From Oscillospiraceae bacterium (GTDB lineage: Bacteria; Bacillota; Clostridia; Oscillospirales; Oscillospiraceae): a DNA stretch of 64,000 nt. Location of the stretch: contig CADARY010000001.1 of assembly GCA_902790375.1 (NCBI GenBank), forward strand, positions 54,260 through 118,259. The letters run 5' to 3'. The translations under genes were made by a program, and so were the position numbers. The notes below the pieces were generated by a model. It did no database searches. It saw only the letters and a program-made list of their open reading frames with translations, and was not told the origin of the DNA. Positions 22,462 through 50,538 of the stretch are shown in pieces (the first letter of the stretch is position 1; each line of letters begins with the position of its first letter).

Positions 22462-23307
22462 TTACCTAAGTTTTTCATATGCAACTGCATAAAAGTTTCT
22501 GAGTCCGAGATCTACCATGAGGGTATAGCTGCCGGAGCGGCGCACGATTATTTTGTCACCCCCGCACAGATCCGTTACGGAGCAGCCGTCTACCGAGAGG
22601 TAGGCGCGTCGATCATGCTGCTTCTCCATTTCAACGGTGATGGTGTTGTCCGGGCCGAGGACGAAGCTGCGAGAGCTCATCATATGTGCGCATATGGGAC
22701 TGATGATAATGTTTTCCGCATTCGGCTCCACGATCGGCCCGCCGGCAGACATGGAGTACCCGGTTGAGCCGGTCGGCGTGGAAAGAATGATCCCGTCGCC
22801 GGAGAAGGCCGTGATCCGGTTGCCGTTGCAGAGCGCCGCAACCTTGATGCAGTCGCCATAGCCGTGCATGACAATATCGTTCAGCGCCTGATCACGGCAG
22901 ATTTCGACACCGCCCCGATAGAGGCTGACATCCAGCTTCATCCGGCGGCTGAGGACATACTCCCCTCTCGCCGCCTTGAGCACATATTCATACTCATCCG
23001 GCTCAAGATTCGCCATAAATCCCTTTGTGCCGAGATTAATGCCAAGCAGGGGAACCGCCTGGGGATGTATGTCTCTGGCCGCATGGAGGATCGTGCCGTC
23101 ACCCCCGATGACAATAATCAGGGAGCAGGAGGGCGCAATGTCAGCAATCGATGTACAGGCGATATCCTCCGGCAGGATCTTATCCCCGCCATCTGCAAAG
23201 ATCGGACAATAGCAGGTTTCAAATCCATGCTCATTCAAAAGCGCGGCGACACGCATGCTGAGCTCGCAATTCTTGTCGCGGAAGGGATTCGGGCAGATCG
23301 CAATCAT
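22462..23307 (-). CDS. nadK: NAD kinase
   Basis: A 281-residue kinase phosphorylating NAD to NADP. Key motifs are IVIGGDGTILHAAR (catalytic Asp in GGDGT), GINLGTKGFMANLE, and the nucleotide-binding ILSTPTGSTGYSMSAGGPI block. The start chosen has GGAGG five bases upstream; a 20-residue extension is possible but reaches into the promoter region. It is 22 bases before argR and sits where Bacillus has no nadK, a common clostridial insertion in this operon. Confidence 0.95.
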   Translation of the reverse strand: MIAICPNPFRDKNCELSMRVAALLNEHGFETCYCPIFADGGDKILPEDIACTSIADIAPSCSLIIVIGGDGTILHAARDIHPQAVPLLGINLGTKGFMANLEPDEYEYVLKAARGEYVLSRRMKLDVSLYRGGVEICRDQALNDIVMHGYGDCIKVAALCNGNRITAFSGDGIILSTPTGSTGYSMSAGGPIVEPNAENIIISPICAHMMSSRSFVLGPDNTITVEMEKQHDRRAYLSVDGCSVTDLCGGDKIIVRRSGSYTLMVDLGLRNFYAVAYEKLR

Positions 23308-23406
23308 AAAAACCTCCGGGCATTCCAGCCCATTTGAATTGAAAGGTATGCGGCTTTCTGTATACACATGCTCCCATTTGAATCTACTGTATGATTATAT
23401 GAATTG

Positions 23407-40166: not shown

Positions 40167-40643
40167 ATGGATGTTAAATCCTATCCGCGCGGCGCAATAG
40201 TCTTCCGTCAGGGAGATGCTGGCGAATGCATGTACGAGATTCAAAATGGGTCTGTCGGGATCTATTATGACTATAAAGGACCCCATGAAAAAAAGATCGC
40301 CCACCTTGCATCCGCCGACGTCTTTGGCGAGATGGGGCTTTTGGATCAGGCTCCCCGCTCGGCCACGGCAGTTGTTCTGGAGGATGATACGGTTCTGACG
40401 ATTGTGACAGAGCAGGACTTCCTCTCTTATTTTGAACAGAACCCGGTCAAGGTCCTGCAGCTGATGCAGCAAATGTGCATTCGGCTTCGCAACACGACCA
40501 CCGATTATCTGGATGCCTGCCGAACGGTGTACGAGACGGCCGAGGCGGAAAAGACCGGGAAAAAGAAGAGTGCAACGCTGATGGACAAGATCAAAAAGCT
40601 GTGCGATTTTTACAGCGGCTTTAACTTCTATGGCGAAGTCTGA
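40167..40643 (+). CDS. Cyclic-nucleotide-binding-domain protein without HTH (first of pair)
   Basis: A 158-residue protein made of one Crp-type beta-roll (residues ~1-100) and a helical tail. The phosphate-binding cassette is well kept, with FGEMGLL at 53-59 and PRSATAV at 63-69, including the Glu and Arg that hold the ribose and phosphate in cNMP-binding members. There is no helix-turn-helix domain, so direct transcription control is unlikely. The tail (LRNTTTDYLDACRTVYE) is shared with the next gene, implying a conserved partner-binding helix. Ligand unknown. Confidence 0.85.
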   Translation: MDVKSYPRGAIVFRQGDAGECMYEIQNGSVGIYYDYKGPHEKKIAHLASADVFGEMGLLDQAPRSATAVVLEDDTVLTIVTEQDFLSYFEQNPVKVLQLMQQMCIRLRNTTTDYLDACRTVYETAEAEKTGKKKSATLMDKIKKLCDFYSGFNFYGEV

Positions 40644-40661
40644 CGGAAAGGAGCAGCACTG

Positions 40662-41129
40662 ATGAAAAAATTGACCTTTGAAAAAAACCAGATTGTTTTC
40701 AGGCAGGGGTCCTTTGATACCAGTATGTACTGTGTCAATCGCGGTCTGATCGGAGTTTTCGTCAACTATGAGACGGAAAAGCAGAAAAAGATCACCGAGT
40801 TTGAAAAGGACCAGCTCTTTGGAGAAATCGGCCTGATCGGCTGCCTGCCGAGAACCGCAACCGCCGTTGCTCTGGAGGATGGAACGGAGCTGTTCGAGAT
40901 CCGCGAAGAAGATTTGAATGTGTATTTTAAGGATAAGCCGGAACAGCTTCTGCTCCTGATGAAGCAGCTCAGTCACCGCATTCGTGAGACCACCCAGAAA
41001 TATATGGATGTCTGCAAGACGATCTACGAAAACGATCAGGAACAGCGGAGAGGCGACCCCAGGAGCGCATGGATCGCGGAGCATATGGATCTGTACTGTG
41101 AAGAGTATGCCAACAGCGAACTGCGTTAA
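40662..41129 (+). CDS. Cyclic-nucleotide-binding-domain protein without HTH (second of pair)
   Basis: A 155-residue paralogue of the preceding protein, starting 18 bases after it behind GGAAAGGAG. The cassette FGEIGLI (53-59) and PRTATAV (63-69) is conserved at identical positions. The tail IRETTQKYMDVCKTIYEND mirrors the first protein, then diverges into a charged end rich in Glu and Arg. Identical spacing suggests tandem duplication, possibly forming a heterodimer. No effector domain is fused, so the pair probably acts on another protein. Confidence 0.85.
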   Translation: MKKLTFEKNQIVFRQGSFDTSMYCVNRGLIGVFVNYETEKQKKITEFEKDQLFGEIGLIGCLPRTATAVALEDGTELFEIREEDLNVYFKDKPEQLLLLMKQLSHRIRETTQKYMDVCKTIYENDQEQRRGDPRSAWIAEHMDLYCEEYANSELR

Positions 41130-41232: not shown

Positions 41233-41287
41233 ATAAAACCAGTGCAGGAGCACAGTCGAAACGACTGTGCTCCTGCACTGGTTTTAT
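41233..41287. terminator. 26-bp perfect inverted repeat, probable bidirectional terminator
   Basis: Two perfect 26-base arms around an AAA loop, bounded by ATAAAACC and GGTTTTAT. It lies about 100 bases after the second CNBD gene and 70 bases past the end of the converging SPOCS-LysM gene. The arms have T-rich ends in both directions, so it can terminate both genes, but the stem is much longer than normal for a terminator. Confidence 0.7.
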
Positions 41288-41356: not shown

Positions 41357-42850
41357 TCAGATACATTTGGGAATGAGAAGCATTTGCTTTGTCTGATCTG
41401 CGTTCTCGTTCATCTCGAGGATCTTTTCCTCGCTGGAATGATATTTCTTTGCCAGCGACCAGAGGCTCTCTCCCTGTGCCCTTACCAGCGTCAGTGTGGG
41501 TATAGACTCCTGCATATAGCTGCTTCCTTCATCCAGGATCACCCCGTCCACCATGCTCACTTCCTTCTTCCCCACCGCCTGACCGCAGATTTCAAGCGTA
41601 ATGGCACAATTTACGGTTTCTCCCTCAGCCTTTGCGCTTACATTGGCTGCCCGAACACGCCGGATCCGAAACTCGCCGCTGTCGAGCTCCTGCGTCAGCG
41701 TGATCGTTCTTCGCCCTGAGCTCAGCTCGCCTTCTCCGTTTCTTATCAGAAGATCCAGGTTTACCGAGACGCTGAGCTTCCCCGGCTCCGCCGTCATACG
41801 GGAAAGTGACGGGAAAACAGCAAGCAGTTCCCGGCATTCTTCCATCAGCCGCACGCTCTCCTCGGCTTTGAGCTCCAGGGTTTTTTCTTCCCCGATCTGC
41901 CGATACTCCTGTGTCCGATACAGCAGATCGGCAGGCATGAGATTGCTGTATGCATCCGTAATGCAGCGGATCGAATGCTCCTGCGCGCAGATGAGCTGAA
42001 GCACCGCATGCAGCTCCATATCCAACGCCTTGTCTCCGTTTATGGTATCCACCAGATCAAAATACGCCCCCGTGATCTCCGGTCTTACCGAGCACAGGTG
42101 CATGCAATCCGCCCCAACGTCGACGATCTGGGAAAAAGGTGACGAAAAGCTGCTTTCCACGGGGTACTCCCCCGCTTCTGCAAAAGCATGGATTTTGACC
42201 TCGGCGCTGCCTTTTATGATGACTTTTGTGCCGATCATCTGACAGTCTTTCACAAGCAGCTCCGCCTGCGCTGCCGCCAGACCGGTCGGGGCTTCGCCTC
42301 CCGGGAAGCTGAACTGTTCGTTGATGGCCATGCTCTTTTCACAGACGGCATTCGGAAGCGTCAGCGTGTTCTCTTCCACCCGAACGTGAAGACCGTATGT
42401 GCTCTCCGGGAGCATGGACTCGATACGCAGCTTTTCACTGCGATAGCAGCTGAGCTCTCCTTCCACCTCAAAGCCCGCCGATATTTTGCGCGGATTAACA
42501 AGGCGCACATCCGTCCCCTGTACGAAGAGGGCAACCTGCGCCAGCGTTTCAGACTCGGGCGGCTCTGTCTCAAACTCGATGGAAAAAGGCTGTCGTACAG
42601 TCAGAGAGGAGATGCCGTTCTTGCCGTCCCGGATATACAGGATGCAGGCTGCAAGTTCTCCCGTGATAAGGATTCCCCTTGCGCTGAGATCCTTGCTCTT
42701 AAGAAAGACACAGCTCTGCACGGCCGCAATCTTCTCGATGTCCGCATCCGTATCCGGGACAACGCACTCCGCACTCTCCTGTACGCGCTTGGCCTGATGA
42801 TAGTATTCTCTGTAAATCGGGATTTCCCTGCTTTCAAAGCTGATATCCAT
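41357..42850 (-). CDS. SPOCS (DUF3794) and LysM-domain spore morphogenetic protein
   Basis: A 497-residue protein without signal peptide. The middle contains SPOCS/DUF3794-type modules (for example VKIHAFAEAGEYPVESSF, FSQIVDV), mostly beta. The C-terminal ~45 residues are a LysM domain (VRAQGESLWSLAKKYH, ILEMNEN, QMLLIPKC). This architecture occurs in SpoVID-like and related proteins that link the coat base layer to the forespore surface. Start chosen at the ATG with GGAG six bases before it. It is 126 bases downstream of spoVM, whose product anchors the coat base in Bacillus, so a joint coat role is a reasonable inference. Confidence 0.85.
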   Translation of the reverse strand: MDISFESREIPIYREYYHQAKRVQESAECVVPDTDADIEKIAAVQSCVFLKSKDLSARGILITGELAACILYIRDGKNGISSLTVRQPFSIEFETEPPESETLAQVALFVQGTDVRLVNPRKISAGFEVEGELSCYRSEKLRIESMLPESTYGLHVRVEENTLTLPNAVCEKSMAINEQFSFPGGEAPTGLAAAQAELLVKDCQMIGTKVIIKGSAEVKIHAFAEAGEYPVESSFSSPFSQIVDVGADCMHLCSVRPEITGAYFDLVDTINGDKALDMELHAVLQLICAQEHSIRCITDAYSNLMPADLLYRTQEYRQIGEEKTLELKAEESVRLMEECRELLAVFPSLSRMTAEPGKLSVSVNLDLLIRNGEGELSSGRRTITLTQELDSGEFRIRRVRAANVSAKAEGETVNCAITLEICGQAVGKKEVSMVDGVILDEGSSYMQESIPTLTLVRAQGESLWSLAKKYHSSEEKILEMNENADQTKQMLLIPKCI

Positions 42851-42891
42851 GCAATGCTCCATTCTGCCGCTCGAATCTGGATCGCTCACTC

Positions 42892-42918
42892 GATCTCCAT
42901 AAGCGGCAGATGGAGATC
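42892..42918 (-). repeat. Intercistronic hairpin between spoVM and the SPOCS-LysM gene
   Basis: GATCTCCAT and ATGGAGATC pair over nine bases around a nine-base loop. No U-run follows. It could stabilise the short spoVM mRNA or reduce read-through into the downstream gene. Confidence 0.4.
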
Positions 42919-42976
42919 TCCCGAGAGGCGCAGCCGGCGCTCCCGTCTTGTACAGCCTATTCTGTCCCGCTCGGGA

Positions 42977-43042
42977 TTATACCTGCAGTCTGATCAGGAT
43001 TTTCGCCAGAAACCGGGGCATCCGAAAAATGATCACCTTCAT
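42977..43042 (-). CDS. spoVM: Stage V sporulation protein M (21 aa)
   Basis: A 21-codon gene beginning MKVIIFRMPRFLAKILIR. It matches the Bacillus SpoVM pattern (MKFYTIKLPKFLGGIVRAM) in length, in the Pro at position 9, in the basic-hydrophobic alternation and in the amphipathic helix after Pro. The ribosome site is ideal (AAAGGAGACGGCA-ATG). SpoVM binds convex forespore membrane and recruits SpoIVA. Gene order rsgA then spoVM is that of Bacillus, where rpe and thiN lie between. It is shorter than Bacillus SpoVM by five residues at the C-terminus. Identity is strong given motif plus synteny. Confidence 0.82.
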   Translation of the reverse strand: MKVIIFRMPRFLAKILIRLQV

Positions 43043-43076
43043 TGCCGTCTCCTTTCCTGCCGACACTGTCGATTCA

Positions 43077-43229
43077 TCAGCAGCATCGAATATACCAAAG
43101 CCCAAACCCGATCAGCGCCGCCGCTGCCAGAAACCACCAGAATTGCGGCGGTAAAACCAGGGACAGCATGATGACCAGTCCCAGAATAACAGCGACCAGT
43201 CCCCAGAGACAACGACGCCCTCTGCGCAT
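43077..43229 (-). CDS. Small membrane protein (50 aa), unknown function
   Basis: A 50-residue protein: basic start MRRGRRC, two hydrophobic segments (about 8-23 and 26-45) separated by PPQ, and a short end with two Cys. The ATG follows a GGGGGG ribosome site, while longer in-frame starts lack one. It lies between rsgA and spoVM in the same direction, 34 bases before spoVM, so the two are likely co-transcribed. I recognise no family. A sporulation link is inferred from position only. Confidence 0.6.
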   Translation of the reverse strand: MRRGRRCLWGLVAVILGLVIMLSLVLPPQFWWFLAAAALIGFGLWYIRCC

Positions 43230-43328
43230 AAAAAACGCCCCCCGCGCTGTGAACTCATTACAGCATATGCGGGAGGTCATTTTATTATTCAGGCAGCGCC
43301 GCGCAGGGATACGCGCTTGCTGCATGAT

Positions 43329-44216
43329 TCAGTCATCCTTGTATTCCCAGAATTTGTGCTGGGCGCTGATCTCATACAGCCGTGCATAGGAGCGGTACCG
43401 GCTCTGTGAGATCTCGCCTGAGGCGACAGCGGCGGTAACAGCACAATCCGGTTCCTTCAAATGCATACAGTCCATAAAACGGCATTTTCCAAGATACGGC
43501 TCGAAATCCGGAAAATCATACTGAAGCTGTTCCTTCAGGATCACATTGGTCATCGTGACATCCAGGGAGGCAAAGCCGGGCGTATCCGCGATATAGGTAT
43601 CTTCTCCCAGCGCATAGAGCTCCACATGGCGTGTCGTATGTTTGCCGCGGCCGAGCTTATCGCTCACCTCCGCGGTCTTGATATGTGCCGACGGCAGCAG
43701 GGCGTTGAGGATACTGGATTTTCCGACGCCCGAGTTGCCGCTGAAGGCGCAGACCTTTCCCTTCAGCAGCCGCGTCAGCTCCTCCAGCCCGGCGCCGGTT
43801 TCCGCGCTGGTGCGCACGACCGGAAAGCCGGCTTTCGTAAAGACAGCATAGAGCTCATCCCCCGGGTCAAGATCGGTCTTGTTGATACAGATCACAAGTT
43901 CACAGCCCGCCTCCGCCGCAATGACGGAAAAACGGTCGATCAGGAAGGGGTCCGTGACGGGATTTGTATTTGCCGCAACAAAGACGAGGGTATCAATATT
44001 GGCCACCGCAGGACGGATAAACCAGTTTTTCCGCTCATGAACGACGTCCACACGGCCTTTTCCGTTTGCGTCGAGGCTGCATTGGACGCGGTCTCCTACC
44101 AGCGGAGAACTGCCGTCCAGGCGGAATCTCCCGCGGGCTTTGCAGTCAATGATCTGTCCCCCCGCGGCCACATAGTAAAAACCGCTGAGGGCTTTCATGA
44201 TGATTCCTTCAACCAT
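43329..44216 (-). CDS. rsgA: Ribosome small subunit-dependent GTPase A
   Basis: A 295-residue circularly permuted GTPase that checks late 30S maturation. It has an N-terminal OB-fold starting MVEGIIMKALSGFYYV, which aligns with the start of Bacillus CpgA and supports this ATG. The permuted G motifs are NKTD (112-115), SGNSGVGKSS (159-168) and DTPGF. A C-terminal zinc knuckle reads CRFMDCMHLKEPDC. It follows prkC by 51 bases, the conserved prpC-prkC-rsgA order. Confidence 0.96.
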   Translation of the reverse strand: MVEGIIMKALSGFYYVAAGGQIIDCKARGRFRLDGSSPLVGDRVQCSLDANGKGRVDVVHERKNWFIRPAVANIDTLVFVAANTNPVTDPFLIDRFSVIAAEAGCELVICINKTDLDPGDELYAVFTKAGFPVVRTSAETGAGLEELTRLLKGKVCAFSGNSGVGKSSILNALLPSAHIKTAEVSDKLGRGKHTTRHVELYALGEDTYIADTPGFASLDVTMTNVILKEQLQYDFPDFEPYLGKCRFMDCMHLKEPDCAVTAAVASGEISQSRYRSYARLYEISAQHKFWEYKDD

Positions 44217-44267: not shown

Positions 44268-45947
44268 TCACAGCTGCGGCCCCAGGGAAATTTTCAGGGA
44301 AATTTTGGAGTGCTCCTCAATCTCCGTGAAGGCGTCGGTGCTCTGGCCGATCACGGTTCCGGCATCCACATCGCTGTATACCCGGTCGGAGCCTCCGAAG
44401 CTCAGTCCGGCGCTCTCCAGGCGGGTGATGGCGGCCTCCTCCGACAGTCCGATCACATTCGGCATACGGACATAGCTGGTCTGCGGTCCGCTGCTGACCA
44501 CGACATAGACGGTGGAGCCGGAGCTCATCTGTTCGCCTGCCATGGGGCTTGTGCTGATGACATAGTCCTTGGTAACGCTCCCGGAGGTCGCGTTTTCAAT
44601 ATCGACGATAAAGCCTGCTTTCTGCAGGCGGTTCTTTGCCTCTCGATAATCCAGATTGACAACATCCGGGACTGCGCTGAAGACCTTGCCGGTGCTGACA
44701 GAGAGCTCAACCTTGATCCCGTCCGGCGTGATCATCATGCTCCGTCCCGGATCGGGGTTCTGGGACAGCACGGTGCCGCTCTCGGTTTCGGTATTGATGA
44801 CATAGACGACATCAAAGCTGTAAAGCGTCGCAAGCTCTGCATTCTCCACAATCCGCTGATAATCGCTGCCGACAAAGTTCGGCAGGCTGATGCGCTCAGC
44901 CGGAGAGAACACTTCCTTGAGCCAGAAATTCCACATGAACACGAACATCACAACGCAAAGCGCAAGCGCTCCGAAGCTGCCCATCAGGAAGGTGACGCGG
45001 CGGGCTCTGCGATGGCGAAGCAGAAAGCGCTCTTTGTCCATCTCGCTTACAGAGCGGATGGGCACAACAGCAGGGTTTTCCAGCGGCTTTTCCTCCGGCT
45101 CGGCCGGTTTGAGCTGCTCCTGCAGAAAAAGCTCGAGATCTGCCAGCAGCTCATTGGCGCTCTGGTAGCGCTGCGCGATATCGGCGCACATGGCCTTGAG
45201 GGTGATGCGCTCAAGCTCCGGCGGAACGCCTTCAACAAGCTCGTGGGGCGCAACTGCCGTGGAATTGATATGCTTGACGGCAATTTCGGCGATGGTATCT
45301 CCCTCGTAGGGCTTCTGGGCTGTGAGCATTTCATACATCACAATACCCAGAGAATAGAGATCGCTCCTTGCATCCGGCAGTTCCCCGCGGGCCTGCTCCG
45401 GGGCAATATAATGGATCGACCCGATCGCCTGGCCGTCATGCTCCTGCACCTCGTTTTCAAGCGCGGCTATGCCGAAGTCCTCCACCTTGACGGTTCCGTC
45501 CCGCAGCATCATGATATTCTGCGGCTTGATGTCCCGGTGGATAATGCCGCGCTCGTGGGCGTGGGCAAGGGCGCGGGCAATCTGACGGGTAAAGTGAACG
45601 ACTTCCCGCCATTGCAGCGCTCCGCGCCGGTCCATGTATTGCCTCAGTGTGATACCGTCTACAAGTTCCATAACTATGTATTCGATTTCATCACTGTGGC
45701 TGACATCGTAAACCGCCACGATATTGGGGTTGGAGAGCATTGCGACAGCATGGGCCTCGGCGCAGAAGGTGCGGCGAAAATCCTCGTCTGCCGCCATCTC
45801 ATCCCGCATGACCTTGACTGCAACGCTGCGGTTCAGGCGCAGGTCCTGCGCCTTATACACCACAGACATGCCGCCCTCGCCGATCAGCTCCTGGATCTCA
45901 TAGCGATCGTCAAAGACCATGCCTATATATTTATCCTTGTAGTCCAT
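44268..45947 (-). CDS. prkC: PASTA-domain serine/threonine protein kinase
   Basis: A 559-residue membrane kinase. Residues ~15-275 are a Hanks kinase domain with GEGGMSVVY, the VAVKVM lysine, HRDIKPQN and VEDFGIAA. A membrane helix lies at ~340-360, followed by three extracellular PASTA repeats that bind muropeptides. PrkC homologues govern growth, germination and cell-wall synthesis. The partner phosphatase prpC is 24 bases upstream. Confidence 0.95.
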
Positions 45948-45971
45948 AGCGTTCTCCGTTCCGGGGACTCC

Positions 45972-46718
45972 TCAGCGCATTACCGCCACAATCGTAACAT
46001 TATCCCTCGCGCCGCGGTTGAGCGCCTTGCTCATCAGCGACCGGCAGAGCTCCTCTGGTTCAGGAAATTCCCGGGCATATTCCAGCATCTCCAGATCGGA
46101 AACGATATTGGAGAGGCCGTCGGAGCACAGCAGAAGAATGTCGCTGTTTTGCAGGGTAAAGGTAAAGTAATCACACTTTACTTGCGCCTCAGAACCGAGC
46201 GCACGCGTGATCACATTTTTCCGCGGGTGGTTGCGCGCCTGTTCGGGGGTTATGGCGCCGGCCTCCACCAGCTCTCCGACCAGAGAATGATCCTTGGTGA
46301 TCTGGCGGATGCTGTTTGAACGCCGGGAGATCAGATAGGCACGGCTGTCACCCACATTGATAATATGCCCATTCCCGTTGTTCTTAATCACGCCTCCGAC
46401 GATGGTGGTGCCCATTCCGTCAAAGTCTTCATCAAAATGGGAATATTCATAGGCTACGCCGTTTGCTTCTGCGCAGGCATCCTCGAGAATACGCTTGTAA
46501 TCGACGCTGCGGGGAAGCCTGGTCATCAGCTTCATATAGATATAGGAGACAAAGGCCTTATTGGAAAGCTGGCTTGCGATGCCGCCCGCTTTGGCGCCGC
46601 CCATCCCGTCGCACAGCGCGGCGATCAGGCAGCGTCCGGTCTCACATTTTTCCAGAATAAAGCAATCCTGATTGTTTTTTCTGACGGCACCCTTGTCTGT
46701 CAAACCATAGCTTTTCAC
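45972..46718 (-). CDS. prpC: PP2C-type serine/threonine phosphatase
   Basis: A 248-residue PPM phosphatase with the metal-binding motifs of the family: VRKNNQDCF near the start, LCDGMGGAKAGGIAS, VGDSRAYL, DHSLVGEL, LLLCSDGLSNIV and the final ARDNVTIVAV. It reverses PrkC phosphorylation. The start overlaps the rlmN stop by four bases. Confidence 0.95.
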   Translation of the reverse strand: MKSYGLTDKGAVRKNNQDCFILEKCETGRCLIAALCDGMGGAKAGGIASQLSNKAFVSYIYMKLMTRLPRSVDYKRILEDACAEANGVAYEYSHFDEDFDGMGTTIVGGVIKNNGNGHIINVGDSRAYLISRRSNSIRQITKDHSLVGELVEAGAITPEQARNHPRKNVITRALGSEAQVKCDYFTFTLQNSDILLLCSDGLSNIVSDLEMLEYAREFPEPEELCRSLMSKALNRGARDNVTIVAVMR

Positions 46719-47782
46719 GTTGACCTCTGTCCTCCCTTCTGTGTTTTCTGCATTTTTCTTCTGAGCTGTCCGCAGGAGGCATCCACATCACTGCCGAGTC
46801 TGCGCCGCACTGTGACGTTGACGCCATTCTCCTCGAGAATTTGGATAAAGTTCTTCAGGTGTTCCGGCGCAGAGGGCTGGAAGGGCCGCTCCTCCACATG
46901 ATTCAAGGGGATCAGATTCACATGCGCCGCGACTGCGCGCGCATGCCTTGCAAGCAGCTTTGCCTGCTCCGGGCTGTCATTGACGCCGTCGATCATGGCA
47001 TATTCAAACGAAATGCGCCGCCCGGTCTTCTCATAATAGTCTCTGCAGGCGCCGATCAGGGCCGCGACCCCGCGCCCGTGGTTTGCCGGCATGATGCGCG
47101 AGCGCGTTTCATCGTCAGGAGCGTGAAGTGAAACCGAGAGTGTGAGCTGTAAATCCCGCTCTGCCAGCGCTGGAAACTTCTCTATGATTCCGCAGGTGGA
47201 CAGGGAGATATGGCGCATCCCGATATTCATGCCCTTCGGGTGATTGACGAGCTCCAGAAAGCGCATGACATTGTCGAAATTATCCAGCGGCTCCCCAATG
47301 CCCATGAGCACGATGTTGGAGATTTTCTTCCCGGAATCCAGCTCGGAAAAAAGCACCTCGTCCAGGATCTCGGAGGCCCTGAGATTGCGCACCAGGCCGC
47401 CGATGGTGGACGCGCAGAAGGCGCAGCCCTGGCGACAGCCCACCTGAGAAGACACGCAGACCGTGTTCCCGTGCTTATAGCTCATCACAACAGTCTCAAC
47501 CGCGTTGCCGTCGCACAGCTCCCAGAGGTATTTGATCGTGCCGTCCATGGTCGAGACCTGTTTGCTCAGCACCTTCGGCTCATACAGGCAGAAGTGCGCA
47601 TCAAGCTTTGCGCGCAGCTCTTTTGAGAGATTGGTCATCCCTTCAAAGCTGCGCACGCCGCGGCTCAGCCACTGGAAAATCTGGGCAGCGCGAAAGCGCG
47701 GCTCTCCCATCTCGGTGAGCGCCTGCTCCAGCTCCTCCGGCAGCAGGGAAAGAATGTCTTTTCTCTCAGTCATATCCATCAT
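46715..47782 (-). CDS. rlmN: Dual-specificity 23S rRNA/tRNA m2A methyltransferase
   Basis: A 355-residue radical SAM enzyme methylating C2 of A2503 in 23S rRNA and of A37 in some tRNAs. The cluster motif is CRQGCAFCAST, the second catalytic Cys lies in LGSDVDASCGQL near the C-terminus, and MGIGEPLDNFDNV and SLSTCGI are typical. Start ATGATGGATATG overlaps the rsmB stop. It continues the Bacillus-like order rsmB-rlmN-prpC. Confidence 0.96.
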   Translation of the reverse strand: MMDMTERKDILSLLPEELEQALTEMGEPRFRAAQIFQWLSRGVRSFEGMTNLSKELRAKLDAHFCLYEPKVLSKQVSTMDGTIKYLWELCDGNAVETVVMSYKHGNTVCVSSQVGCRQGCAFCASTIGGLVRNLRASEILDEVLFSELDSGKKISNIVLMGIGEPLDNFDNVMRFLELVNHPKGMNIGMRHISLSTCGIIEKFPALAERDLQLTLSVSLHAPDDETRSRIMPANHGRGVAALIGACRDYYEKTGRRISFEYAMIDGVNDSPEQAKLLARHARAVAAHVNLIPLNHVEERPFQPSAPEHLKNFIQILEENGVNVTVRRRLGSDVDASCGQLRRKMQKTQKGGQRST

Positions 47783-49104
47783 CCGGTTTTAACAGTCCTT
47801 CTCAGTTTGGCGGCAAAAAAGCCGTCTGTCTCATCTATATTTGGCCAGAACGTGTACATGCCGCTTTCACTGCGGATATTGCCGGCAGAGAACGCCTCGA
47901 GGCGGTATTCTGCGCTTGTTTCCAAAAACCGCAGCACAGGCTCCTCATTCTCCGCTTTCAGAATTGTACAGGTTGAATACAGCAGTACCCCGCCGGGTTT
48001 GACATAGCGGCTCAGGTTTTCCAGAATGGAAAACTGGATCTCAGGCAGTCCCTGCAGGCTTTTCGGATCTTTCGCACGGATCTCCGGCTTCTTGGCAATC
48101 ACGCCCAGACCGGAACACGGCACGTCCGCAATCACGACATCGAAGCTGTCTGCAAGGAGCGGATCAAAGATCCGTGCATCCATGGCCCGTGTTTGAATGC
48201 AGTCGATTCCAAGCCTTTCGGCGCCGCGCTCAAGAACCTGCAGCTTCTTTTCGTGAATATCGCAGGAGAGGATGCTGCCGCGGTTTTCCATACGAACGGC
48301 GGCGGCGAAGCTTTTTCCGCCCGGGCAGGCGCAGGCATCCAGCACATGTATGCCGGGCGCAGGCGCTGCAATCTCAACTGCCAGCCGCGCAGCGCGATCC
48401 TGCACATAGAAAAGGCCCTCTTTATAACCGGGCAGTTCGGATGTGATCCCCTTTTCAAGCTCGATACAGCCCTCCGGCTCACGGATGCGAAAAGAATATC
48501 CGGCCTCCTCGAGCCTTCCGGCATACTGCTCAGTCGTCGTTTTCAGCGTATTGACCTGGATACAAAGGCCTGGGGCTTCGTTGTTTTTTGCAAGAAAAGC
48601 CTCGGCGAAAGAATAGCCCTTCTCGGCAGCCAAAAGCTCGCAGAGCCACAGGGGATGGCTGTATCGTATGGCGAGATACGCAGCCGTTCCCTCGCCGGGA
48701 ATCCTGGGCAAAGCATCACGCTCTTCGGCAGCGCGGCGCAGTACCGCGTTGGTAAGCCCGGCAGCACGTGACAGCCCCTTCACGCGGCAAAGCTCCACCG
48801 TCTCACTGACGGCAGCGCGTGCCGGGATGCGTTCCATGAAAAGGAGCTGATACATTCCGAGGCGAAGAATATCCCGCACGACCGGCTCCAGCTTTGACGG
48901 GCAGAAGCAGCCAATATAGTAATCGCACAGGCTCTCATTCTGCAGGACGCCGAGACAAAGCCGCGAGGCCAGGGCCGCGTCTCGCCGGTCGAGGCCGTAT
49001 TTGCGTACAGCTGCATCAATTGCCGCGCCGGACCAGGAAGCGTCCCTTCGGCAGCGGATCAGTGTCTCCAAAGCTGCCGCACGTGCGTTTTCGTTCCTGC
49101 TCAT
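47779..49104 (-). CDS. rsmB: 16S rRNA m5C967 methyltransferase
   Basis: A 441-residue protein with a NusB-like RNA-binding N-terminal third (RCLGVLQNESLCDYYIG-type helices) and a SAM-dependent methyltransferase domain. The SAM motif is VLDACACPGGKSF, and the catalytic cysteines lie in ADVPCSGLGVI and YSTCTIL. The ATG overlaps the fmt stop (ATGA); the 34-residue extension upstream is rejected. It acts in ribosome maturation. Confidence 0.95.
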   Translation of the reverse strand: MSRNENARAAALETLIRCRRDASWSGAAIDAAVRKYGLDRRDAALASRLCLGVLQNESLCDYYIGCFCPSKLEPVVRDILRLGMYQLLFMERIPARAAVSETVELCRVKGLSRAAGLTNAVLRRAAEERDALPRIPGEGTAAYLAIRYSHPLWLCELLAAEKGYSFAEAFLAKNNEAPGLCIQVNTLKTTTEQYAGRLEEAGYSFRIREPEGCIELEKGITSELPGYKEGLFYVQDRAARLAVEIAAPAPGIHVLDACACPGGKSFAAAVRMENRGSILSCDIHEKKLQVLERGAERLGIDCIQTRAMDARIFDPLLADSFDVVIADVPCSGLGVIAKKPEIRAKDPKSLQGLPEIQFSILENLSRYVKPGGVLLYSTCTILKAENEEPVLRFLETSAEYRLEAFSAGNIRSESGMYTFWPNIDETDGFFAAKLRRTVKTG

Positions 49105-50021
49105 TCCGTCTTGATCCGGTGTCCGCGCAGAAACTCGGCAGCCTTCATCCGCTTCCTGCCGGGAGCCTGAAGCTCGGTAATCAGGACACACCAGCCATCG
49201 GCACACGCCACGGCAATTCCCTCTTCATCCGCACGGACAATACTCCCGGGCTCTTTGCCTGTGCTGCGCTCTGTGTACCCCGCTGCAAAGACGCGGAGAG
49301 TCTTCCCATCAAGCTCCATGGTCGCCACAGGCCAGGGCTGCAGGCCGTATATGTGTTTGACGATTTCACGCGGCGTTCGGTTCCAGTCTATGGGGCAAAT
49401 GGATTTATCCAGCATTTTGCAGTAGCTGGCCTGCTCATGATCCTGTGGGATGCGCGGCGCAGTACCGGCCTCAATGTCCCGCAGGGTCCTGACCAAAAGG
49501 TCGGCGCCCATTTCCATCAGGCGGTCAAAAAGCTCACCGGCAGTCTCAAACTCACCGATCGCCGTCTCTTCCCGATAAATGATATCCCCGGCATCCATGT
49601 CATGGGCCAGGTACATGGTTGTAACGCCGCTTTTTTGATCTCCGTTCAGCACGGCCCACTGGATGGGGGCAGCCCCCCGGTATTTCGGCAGCAGAGAGCC
49701 GTGTACGTTCACGGCGCCATACTTCGGTACGGCCAGGAGATCGTCCGGAAGAATGCGGCCGTAGGCAACGACCACCATAATATCCGGCTGCAGCTCTTTT
49801 ACGATCTGCAAAGCCGCCCCATCGCGCATCTTCTCCGGCTGAAATACCGGCAGAGCATGAGCAAGCGCAAGCTCCTTCACCGGTGAAAAGCTCATCTCCA
49901 TGCCGCGGCCCCTGGGCTTGTCAGGCTGGGTAAAAACACCGGCAATTTCAAATTTTTCTTCGATCAGCTTTTTCAGCGAGGCCGCCGCAAAATCCGGCGT
50001 CCCCATAAATACGATACGCAT
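49101..50021 (-). CDS. fmt: Methionyl-tRNA formyltransferase
   Basis: A 306-residue enzyme that formylates initiator Met-tRNA with 10-formyl-THF. The N-terminal RIVFMGTPDFAAASL, the catalytic VNVHGSLLPKYRGAAPIQWA block with its Asn-His pair, and the C-terminal OB-like tRNA domain are present. Length is normal. Directly follows def, the deformylase that later removes the group, 13 bases apart. Confidence 0.96.
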   Translation of the reverse strand: MRIVFMGTPDFAAASLKKLIEEKFEIAGVFTQPDKPRGRGMEMSFSPVKELALAHALPVFQPEKMRDGAALQIVKELQPDIMVVVAYGRILPDDLLAVPKYGAVNVHGSLLPKYRGAAPIQWAVLNGDQKSGVTTMYLAHDMDAGDIIYREETAIGEFETAGELFDRLMEMGADLLVRTLRDIEAGTAPRIPQDHEQASYCKMLDKSICPIDWNRTPREIVKHIYGLQPWPVATMELDGKTLRVFAAGYTERSTGKEPGSIVRADEEGIAVACADGWCVLITELQAPGRKRMKAAEFLRGHRIKTE

Positions 50022-50034
50022 AGCAGCTCCCGCC

Positions 50035-50538
50035 TTACTCTTCAACTTTTCCGGATTCAAGCTCCTCTTCGCTCAGCATGCGTTCACACTTGGAGGTAAA
50101 GACGATCCCATTGAGATGGTCGATCTCATGGCAGAAGCAGCGGGCAGTAAGTCCGGTGCCCTCCACCTCAAAGAAATTGCCGTTTCGATCCTGCGCGCGG
50201 ACCTTGACATTCAGCGGTCTTCTCACCATTCCGTATTCTCCCGGAACACTCAGGCAGCCTTCCGCGCCATACTGCTCGCCGGAGCTCTCTATGATCTCGG
50301 GGTTGACAAGCTCGATGAGGCGCTCCTCCTCCCCCTCCGGAACATTGGTCTCCAGCACAATAACAGCGCGGCGCAGCACCCCGACCTGGGGGGCTGCCAG
50401 ACCGACGCCGTTTTCCGTCGACAGTGTATCGGCCATATCGTCCAGAAGCTGATGCAGCCTCGGATTAAACTCTGTTACAGGCCGGCATTTTTTGTACAGT
50501 CCCGGCTCTTCCTTGGTGAGAATATTTCTGCGTGCCAT
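50035..50538 (-). CDS. def: Peptide deformylase
   Basis: A 167-residue metalloenzyme removing formyl from nascent N-termini. All three motifs are present: GVGLAAPQ, EGCLSVPG with the metal Cys, and HEIDHLNG with the HExxH pair. Length fits a class I enzyme. It lies 15 bases after priA and forms the usual def-fmt-rsmB cluster. Confidence 0.96.
   Translation of the reverse strand: MARRNILTKEEPGLYKKCRPVTEFNPRLHQLLDDMADTLSTENGVGLAAPQVGVLRRAVIVLETNVPEGEEERLIELVNPEIIESSGEQYGAEGCLSVPGEYGMVRRPLNVKVRAQDRNGNFFEVEGTGLTARCFCHEIDHLNGIVFTSKCERMLSEEELESGKVEE

What the first reader, a model, noticed from the sequence alone, without database searches (positions are those of the whole stretch)
42977..43042. 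Hidden 21-codon spoVM gene
A microgene below usual ORF cut-offs begins MKVIIFRMPRFLAKILIR behind a perfect AAAGGAGACGGCA ribosome site. Length, Pro9, basic-hydrophobic pattern and the helix after Pro match Bacillus SpoVM, and its place after rsgA matches the Bacillus order. The C-terminus is five residues shorter than in Bacillus. Automated annotation would probably miss it.
Basis: partly seen in the sequence, partly recalled or inferred. Interest (0 to 1): 0.75.

Follow-up and report, generated by a model that had tools for sequence, protein, structure and literature searches.

The report
Hidden spoVM behind a hairpin switch
A real but easily overlooked 21-residue spore-coat gene (spoVM) lies in an uncultured, probably rumen, bacterium directly behind another overlooked 50-residue membrane protein gene, and both appear to be held silent by an RNA hairpin until the spore-making mother cell starts transcription from inside that hairpin.

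Summary
The 21-codon gene is real and is spoVM. It sits in the same slot with Pro9 in 38 of 44 same-genus genomes that keep the locus. Its NCBIfam SpoVM score, 16.4 bits, is below the curated cut-off of 31, so automatic annotation would probably miss it. No other SpoVM-family match was found in its genome, which also has spoIVA.

The surroundings are more interesting.
(1) Directly upstream lies a 50-aa two-helix ORF, "TM50", that matches no Pfam or NCBIfam family. Related ORFs precede spoVM in 23 further families of the class.
(2) spoVM is missing in 6 of the 44 TM50 genomes, with at least four losses on an RsgA tree.
(3) Between rsgA and TM50 lies a covarying hairpin. Its 3' arm is the TM50 ribosome site, and a SigE-type promoter lies in its 5' half.
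(4) The same layout precedes spoIVA and a murA-like gene.

Best reading: read-through RNA folds and is silent; RNA begun by the mother-cell sigma factor lacks the 5' arm and is translated. Structure and promoter are shown computationally; switching and TM50's role are inferred. The principle is known from T4 gene e and B. subtilis sigG.

The parts
42977..43042 (-). spoVM, 21 codons plus stop
43049..43055 (-). Shine-Dalgarno AAAGGAG of spoVM
   Evidence: sequence; purine-rich sites upstream of the homologues
43077..43229 (-). TM50: 50-aa predicted two-helix membrane microprotein, no Pfam or NCBIfam family, encoded directly upstream of spoVM
   Evidence: AlphaFold helices 5-25 and 28-49, mean pLDDT 72.6, pTM 0.40
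43225..43295 (-). conserved promoter-hairpin element (model R1, 59.5 bits; the window copy was one of the 43 sequences used to build R1)
43269..43276 (-). 5' arm of the hairpin (CCTCCCGC)
43238..43245 (-). 3' arm of the hairpin (GCGGGGGG), also the Shine-Dalgarno region of TM50
43230..43235 (-). run of six T between the hairpin and the TM50 start codon
   Evidence: sequence; T counts
43285..43291 (-). SigE-type -35 element TGAATAA
43262..43269 (-). SigE-type -10 element CATATGCT, 16 bases after the ATA of the -35, where the hairpin's 5' arm meets the loop
   Evidence: score 26.6, the highest of 44
42977..42983 (-). -35 element GGTATAA of the sipL promoter; overlaps the last codon and stop of spoVM
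42951..42961 (-). -10 element AATAGGCTGTA of the sipL promoter
41357..42862 (-). sipL-type gene (SPOCS domain, C-terminal LysM); the start could also be 42850
43329..44216 (-). rsgA, last gene of the upstream housekeeping operon
44268..50060 (-). upstream housekeeping genes fmt-rsmB-rlmN-stp1-prkC

Best explanation
The microgene is spoVM. It is the second gene of a mother-cell unit, TM50-spoVM, followed by sipL with its own SigE-type promoter, attached to the end of the housekeeping operon fmt-rsmB-rlmN-stp1-prkC-rsgA. A hairpin separates the two units. RNA that reads through from rsgA contains both arms. It folds, ends at the following U-run and/or hides the TM50 ribosome site, so the sporulation genes stay silent in growing cells. 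A SigE-type promoter sits across the hairpin's 5' half, so RNA started by the sporulation sigma factor begins in the loop, lacks the 5' arm and can be translated. SpoVM then marks the forespore membrane and recruits SpoIVA, with SipL joining the coat base; this part is taken from work on other species. TM50 is a two-helix hairpin protein that probably acts with SpoVM or SpoIVA at the forespore membrane (inferred). Shown by computation: the genes, their conservation and linkage, the covarying hairpin, the promoter motif. Inferred: start site, silencing, TM50 function.
For: Gene order rsgA-TM50-spoVM-sipL recurs in same-genus loci. Hairpin: 57 double-change cells against 10.6 in shuffles, 96.5% of cells paired. 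A promoter model trained on 32 sipL promoters finds the site in 40 of 44 TM50 upstreams and 0 of 43 rsgA controls. Ribosome site paired above 0.9 in read-through RNA: 39 of 44 TM50, 11 of 12 spoIVA, 16 of 17 murA-like, against 2 of 43 rsgA and 2 of 42 sipL; in RNA begun at the predicted start 2 of 44, 0 of 12 and 0 of 17. None of 52 window genes chosen by codon usage combines a paired site with the -10 motif. In C. difficile spoVM is cotranscribed with an upstream 50-aa gene, CD25622, and sigma-E controls spoVM, spoIVA and sipL there (PMC5607322, passages).
Against: No expression data for this genus. In promoter-started RNA the ribosome site is only partly freed: mean pairing 0.53 (TM50), 0.34 (spoIVA), 0.55 (murA-like). 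In the window species it is the weak GGGGGG and stays about 0.74-0.80 paired. Outside the genus only 8 of 46 TM50-type starts tested have the site paired above 0.9. The promoter is SigE-like by resemblance; SigK is not excluded, and the murA-like gene looks SigK-like by eye. Only 5 of 12 spoIVA sites exceed the shuffled 95th percentile under the sipL-trained model, and the hairpin model itself did not report spoIVA. On TM50: the C. difficile authors saw no added defect in CD25622 insertions over spoVM mutants and thought it has little impact on sporulation. Six genomes of the genus lack spoVM.
Confidence: 0.78

Rival explanations
1. It is plain spoVM, and the hairpin is only the intrinsic terminator of the rsgA operon. 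The mother-cell promoter overlaps it because the genome is compact; there is no translational gating.
For: Stem followed by a T-rich stretch; mean T in the last 8 bases before the start is 4.45 for TM50, 5.67 for spoIVA, 5.71 for the murA-like gene, against 1.02 for rsgA and 1.88 for sipL.
Against: In all three gene sets the 3' arm coincides with the ribosome site, although a terminator could sit elsewhere in the gap. Termination and gating are not exclusive.
Confidence: 0.3
2. The hairpin is a protein- or ligand-responsive leader (riboswitch-like) that tunes TM50-spoVM within sporulation.
For: Deep conservation of an RNA structure.
Against: No Rfam match. The strongly conserved bases outside the stem belong to the -10 element and the T-run. 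The promoter lies inside the structure, so promoter-started RNA should lack it.
Confidence: 0.07
3. The 21-codon ORF is a chance ORF or a leader peptide for sipL, not SpoVM.
For: Very short; its profile score is below the curated cut-off.
Against: Pro9 and M1 invariant, pN/pS 0.35, a relative in another family of the order scores 46.1 bits, and the position is kept in 38 of 44 genomes. In the window species sipL has its own promoter overlapping the spoVM stop codon.
Confidence: 0.03

Closest known systems
SpoVM of Bacillus and Clostridia (NCBIfam NF033436)
   Same: short peptide with Pro9 and the basic-hydrophobic pattern, position near the rsgA operon, spoIVA present in the same genome
   Different: 20-25 aa in most same-genus copies read (up to 36) against a 26-position model; scores below the curated cut-off; neighbours are TM50 and sipL
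C. difficile CD25622-spoVM operon (PMC5607322, passages)
   Same: a 50-aa protein of unknown function encoded directly upstream of spoVM and cotranscribed with it
   Different: The paper says CD25622 appears unique to Peptostreptococcaceae; here profile-related ORFs occupy that position in 23 families of the class besides the genus. I fetched no C. difficile sequence, so CD25622's membership is untested.
B. subtilis sigG large read-through hairpin (PMC5942855, passages)
   Same: a hairpin proposed to block translation of read-through RNA that cannot form in RNA from the gene's own promoter
   Different: single gene, different sigma factors; here the layout recurs at several genes and is conserved across species
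Phage T4 gene e, soc, 49 and I-TevI hairpins (PMC3014915, passages)
   Same: the ribosome site is hidden in early RNA, and a late promoter lies in the DNA for the 5' strand of the structure
   Different: phage timing rather than cell-type-specific expression

Membership tests
SpoVM (NF033436) | peptide under about 30 aa with Met1 and Pro9 | tested here: met
SpoVM (NF033436) | match to the SpoVM profile | tested here: met
   16.4 bits, E 0.0067, residues 1-16; all 28 members of A1 match at E<=1
SpoVM (NF033436) | score above NCBI's annotation cut-off of 31 bits (an annotation threshold, not a biological property) | tested here: not met
   Eight same-genus relatives scored 18.9-30.7; of two from other families L012 scored 29.9 and L024 46.1
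SpoVM (NF033436) | position behind the rsmB-rlmN-stp1-prkC-rsgA operon | tested here: met
   the Bacillus order itself is recalled
SpoVM (NF033436) | partner SpoIVA encoded in the genome | tested here: met
   628.8 bits against a cut-off of 459.9
SpoVM (NF033436) | localises to the forespore surface and binds SpoIVA | not testable with these tools
   needs microscopy and pull-down
Promoter-in-hairpin control of read-through RNA (sigG or T4 gene e type) | ribosome site paired in read-through RNA and freed in RNA from the gene's own promoter (predicted) | tested here: inconclusive
   Clear for the gene sets by the 0.9 criterion, though mean pairing in the short RNA is still 0.34-0.55; in the window species 0.999 falls only to 0.74-0.80
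Promoter-in-hairpin control of read-through RNA (sigG or T4 gene e type) | measured silencing of read-through RNA | not testable with these tools
   needs reporters
CD25622 family | sequence homology of TM50 to CD25622 | not tested
   the C. difficile sequence was not fetched; position and length only

The most novel reading that the evidence does not exclude
In these Oscillospiraceae the mother-cell sigma factors switch on a set of key spore genes (TM50-spoVM, spoIVA, a murA-like gene, probably more) from promoters buried inside hairpins that silence leakage from housekeeping operons: a regulon-wide gate at the level of translation. In addition, a previously unrecognised membrane microprotein family accompanies spoVM across much of the Clostridia and outlives it when spoVM is lost.
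Probability: 0.55. Interest if true: 0.75.

Novelty: new variant of a known kind. Interest (0 to 1): 0.62.

Why it matters
Galperin et al. 2012 (PMC3533761, passages) asked whether distant SpoVM versions hide in clostridial genomes where searches failed; here is such a group, and the eight same-genus relatives scored singly, like the window's own copy, fall under the annotation cut-off. Repeated natural loss of spoVM with TM50 and sipL kept (and spoIVA in the three of six checked) agrees with the report that SpoVM is largely dispensable in C. difficile, and points to TM50 as a player that has not been tested on its own. The promoter-hairpin layout would give a compact genome a simple, testable way to hang cell-type-specific genes on the end of a housekeeping operon.

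Tried and rejected
Rfam gave nothing for 42800..43400. Pfam and NCBIfam gave no family for TM50, only weak hits far below cut-off. No solved structure matched by sequence. AlphaFold gives TM50 two helices, 5-25 and 28-49, at modest confidence (pLDDT 72.6, pTM 0.40); I did not run a fold search on it. A strict hydropathy filter found the upstream hydrophobic ORF in 46 of 108 loci outside the genus, against 0 of 3,666 control windows; it missed many that the profile or the eye accept. Searches were failed scripts for the profile test that ran. An NAD-kinase gene (22462..23367) comes near the hairpin-plus-promoter criteria (0.88 paired) but looks like chance. A first control of 48 long ORFs picked by length gave 5 paired and 0 with both features, but included antisense ORFs; a cleaner set of 52 chosen by codon usage gave 6 and 0. 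Literature searches returned no paper; 14, 88 and 108 were seen as listings, apart from the papers cited by passages.

Selection to disclose: the class search found SpoVM matches in 137 of 243 genomes. I examined 88 loci: 28 of the 30 the tool returned (own copy and a duplicate left out) plus 60 that I picked to spread over families. The order-level set is 20 loci that I picked from genomes with a SpoVM match. The spoIVA layout was scored in 12 same-genus genomes (own included), those whose loci the tool returned; by eye, among 18 spoIVA loci of other families one is clear (L229) and L239 and L240 are partial. The murA-like set (17) came from hits of the hairpin model itself, so hairpins were selected for; its sequences were not used to build the model. 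The sipL training sites (32 of 42) were chosen by fit to a consensus that I wrote by eye from the same sequences. Shuffles keep base composition only.

Full report
What is there. The reverse strand at 43042..42977 encodes MKVIIFRMPRFLAKILIRLQV with AAAGGAG six bases upstream. Upstream genes on the same strand are fmt, rsmB, rlmN, stp1, prkC and rsgA. Downstream is a 501-aa protein with a SPOCS domain and a C-terminal LysM, that is, SipL-type. Between rsgA and spoVM lies a 50-aa ORF, here called TM50 (43229..43077).

Is it spoVM. NCBIfam SpoVM_broad matches residues 1-16 at 16.4 bits against a cut-off of 31. All 28 members of A1, the window's own included, match the model at E<=1. Of ten relatives scored singly, eight of the same genus reach 18.9-30.7 bits and two from other families reach 29.9 and 46.1. 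Searching 99 genomes (own included) with the 21-aa peptide gave 40 with a match at E<=10. All 30 loci then read (own included) begin with ATG and have Pro9. In the own genome the SpoVM family rings only here; the lax A1 profile adds a partial match at E 0.7. spoIVA is present at 628.8 bits. Ten distinct 21-codon copies give pN/pS 0.35. In named records, 16 of the 38 rsgA loci that I scanned (of 46 returned) show a SpoVM-pattern ORF downstream. The closest are metagenome assemblies titled mostly Ruminococcaceae, Oscillospiraceae or Clostridiales; their RUG names point to the rumen (recalled).

TM50. Forty-four of 61 same-genus genomes (own included) have TM50 at E below 1e-9 (tallied). Among the first 37 of these 61 genomes, TM50 and spoIVA co-occur: 24 both, 10 neither, 3 TM50 only, 0 spoIVA only (Fisher p 8e-7, not corrected for kinship; assemblies are 57-99% complete). 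In 20 of 20 order-level loci picked by me, a short hydrophobic ORF ends 10-235 bases before spoVM (by eye). A profile built from genus and order sequences, searched against all six-frame segments of 88 other class loci, gave 43 hits at E<=0.001. Forty-two lie upstream of spoVM, in 41 loci and 23 families, although that zone holds 246 of 4,538 segments; the other hit is a tandem copy just beyond the zone. Forty-seven of the 88 loci had no such hit, including all those examined from families f31 (10), f48 (5) and f72 (4). The profile reads hydrophobic proteins, so homology across all families is likely rather than proven; the positional linkage is firm. Pfam and NCBIfam have no family for it. 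AlphaFold predicts helices 5-25 and 28-49, broken at the conserved Pro27. A C. difficile study found a 50-aa gene of unknown function, CD25622, cotranscribed ahead of spoVM, and thought it unique to its family. Insertions in it were likely polar on spoVM and gave the same defect as spoVM mutants, from which the authors inferred little impact of CD25622 (PMC5607322, passages).

Natural losses. Of the 44 TM50 genomes, 38 have spoVM, some divergent and two with GTG starts (G026, G002). Six do not, although TM50 and sipL are intact on both sides. The lax profile found nothing convincing elsewhere in those six. spoIVA is present in the three of the six that were searched for it. On an RsgA tree the six need five losses if spoVM is never regained, four if one weakly supported node is rearranged (single gene). 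This agrees with the report that SpoVM is largely dispensable in C. difficile.

The hairpin. The gap before TM50 holds a GC-rich hairpin in each distinct same-genus sequence folded. In 43 distinct sequences 8 of 10 stem pairs show changes on both sides: 57 double-change cells against 10.6 in shuffles, 96.5% of cells paired against 57.9-62.5% when slid by 1-3 columns. The 3' arm is the TM50 ribosome site and is followed by a T-rich stretch and the start codon. In the own genome the model gives 8 matches at E<=10: TM50 at 59.5 bits, a murA-like gene after murG at 36.5 bits, and a ZIP-type transporter at 15.9 bits; most of the other five look like plain terminators, and spoIVA is not among them (the names murA, murG and ZIP are my reading of the sequences). 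The spoIVA hairpin was seen directly in the sequence. Among 20 regions fetched from further model hits in relatives, 16 precede a murA-like gene, two a ZIP-type gene, one a penicillin-binding-protein-like gene, and one shows no clear gene.

The promoter. A conserved promoter precedes sipL in 32 of 42 sequences: ATA, 16 bases, CATA..CTGTA. A model trained on those 32 and applied to TM50 upstreams exceeds the shuffled 95th percentile in 40 of 44, at about 40 bases before the start; rsgA upstreams give 0 of 43. In the window it reads TGAATAA-16-CATATGCT, the top score. spoIVA upstreams show the same spacing in 12 of 12, but only 5 exceed the shuffled threshold. Calling it SigE rests on resemblance to the recalled consensus and on published sigma-E control of spoVM, spoIVA and sipL in C. 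difficile.

How it probably works. In RNA reading through from rsgA the ribosome site is paired above 0.9 in 39 of 44 TM50, 11 of 12 spoIVA and 16 of 17 murA-like upstreams, against 2 of 43 rsgA and 2 of 42 sipL. In RNA begun at the predicted start the figures are 2 of 44, 0 of 12 and 0 of 17, with mean pairing 0.53, 0.34 and 0.55. Of 52 window genes chosen by codon usage, 6 have a paired site and none also has the -10 motif. For the window species itself the predicted short RNA still pairs the site at about 0.74-0.80, so gating may be less clean here than in its relatives. In another genus of the family, where no TM50 was found at the locus, the same hairpin with CATATGCT lies directly before spoVM (L166). 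Outside the genus the layout is scattered: 8 of 46.

Comparison. The principle is known. In B. subtilis a large hairpin is proposed to block read-through translation of sigG and cannot form in RNA from its own promoter (PMC5942855, passages); T4 gene e, soc, 49 and I-TevI have comparable structures (PMC3014915, passages). I found no report of it as a recurrent, covarying element at several mother-cell genes, but only an open-access library was searched, with few queries.

Verdict. The finding is right. spoVM alone is a new member of a known kind; with the promoter-hairpin and the TM50 family the locus is a new variant worth testing.

Noticed in passing
window 42863..42976 (-), sipL leader: In eight close species the sipL leader carries a nearly invariant stretch (ATCTCCATCTGCCGCTTATGGAGAT ... 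AGCGGCAGAAGGAG) that could form two overlapping, mutually exclusive stems next to the ribosome site; possibly a pseudoknot or a second RNA control (by eye).
   Followed up: no
window 42977..42983 (-): In the window species the sipL promoter -35 overlaps the last codon and stop of spoVM, which may go with the short C-terminus.
   Followed up: partly
L087, L089, L090, L091, L092, L093: spoVM missing between intact TM50 and sipL in six same-genus genomes.
   Followed up: yes
L340, L341: Two further metagenome assemblies with a TM50-type ORF after rsgA but no SpoVM-pattern ORF.
   Followed up: no
L137, L179, L189: Three loci of one family of the class (f45) have two tandem TM50-type ORFs before spoVM.
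   Followed up: no
L218 1501-1569; L283-L294, L296, L299, L300, L302: A murA-like gene, after murG in the own genome, with a hairpin-borne promoter that looks SigK-like by eye (-35 CACA/AACA); similar genes in relatives.
   Followed up: partly
window 41239..41281: A 20-pair hairpin with T-runs on both strands, a possible bidirectional terminator between sipL and a CRP-like gene.
   Followed up: no
window 40167..41129 (+): Two tandem short CRP-like ORFs of 158 and 155 aa.
   Followed up: no
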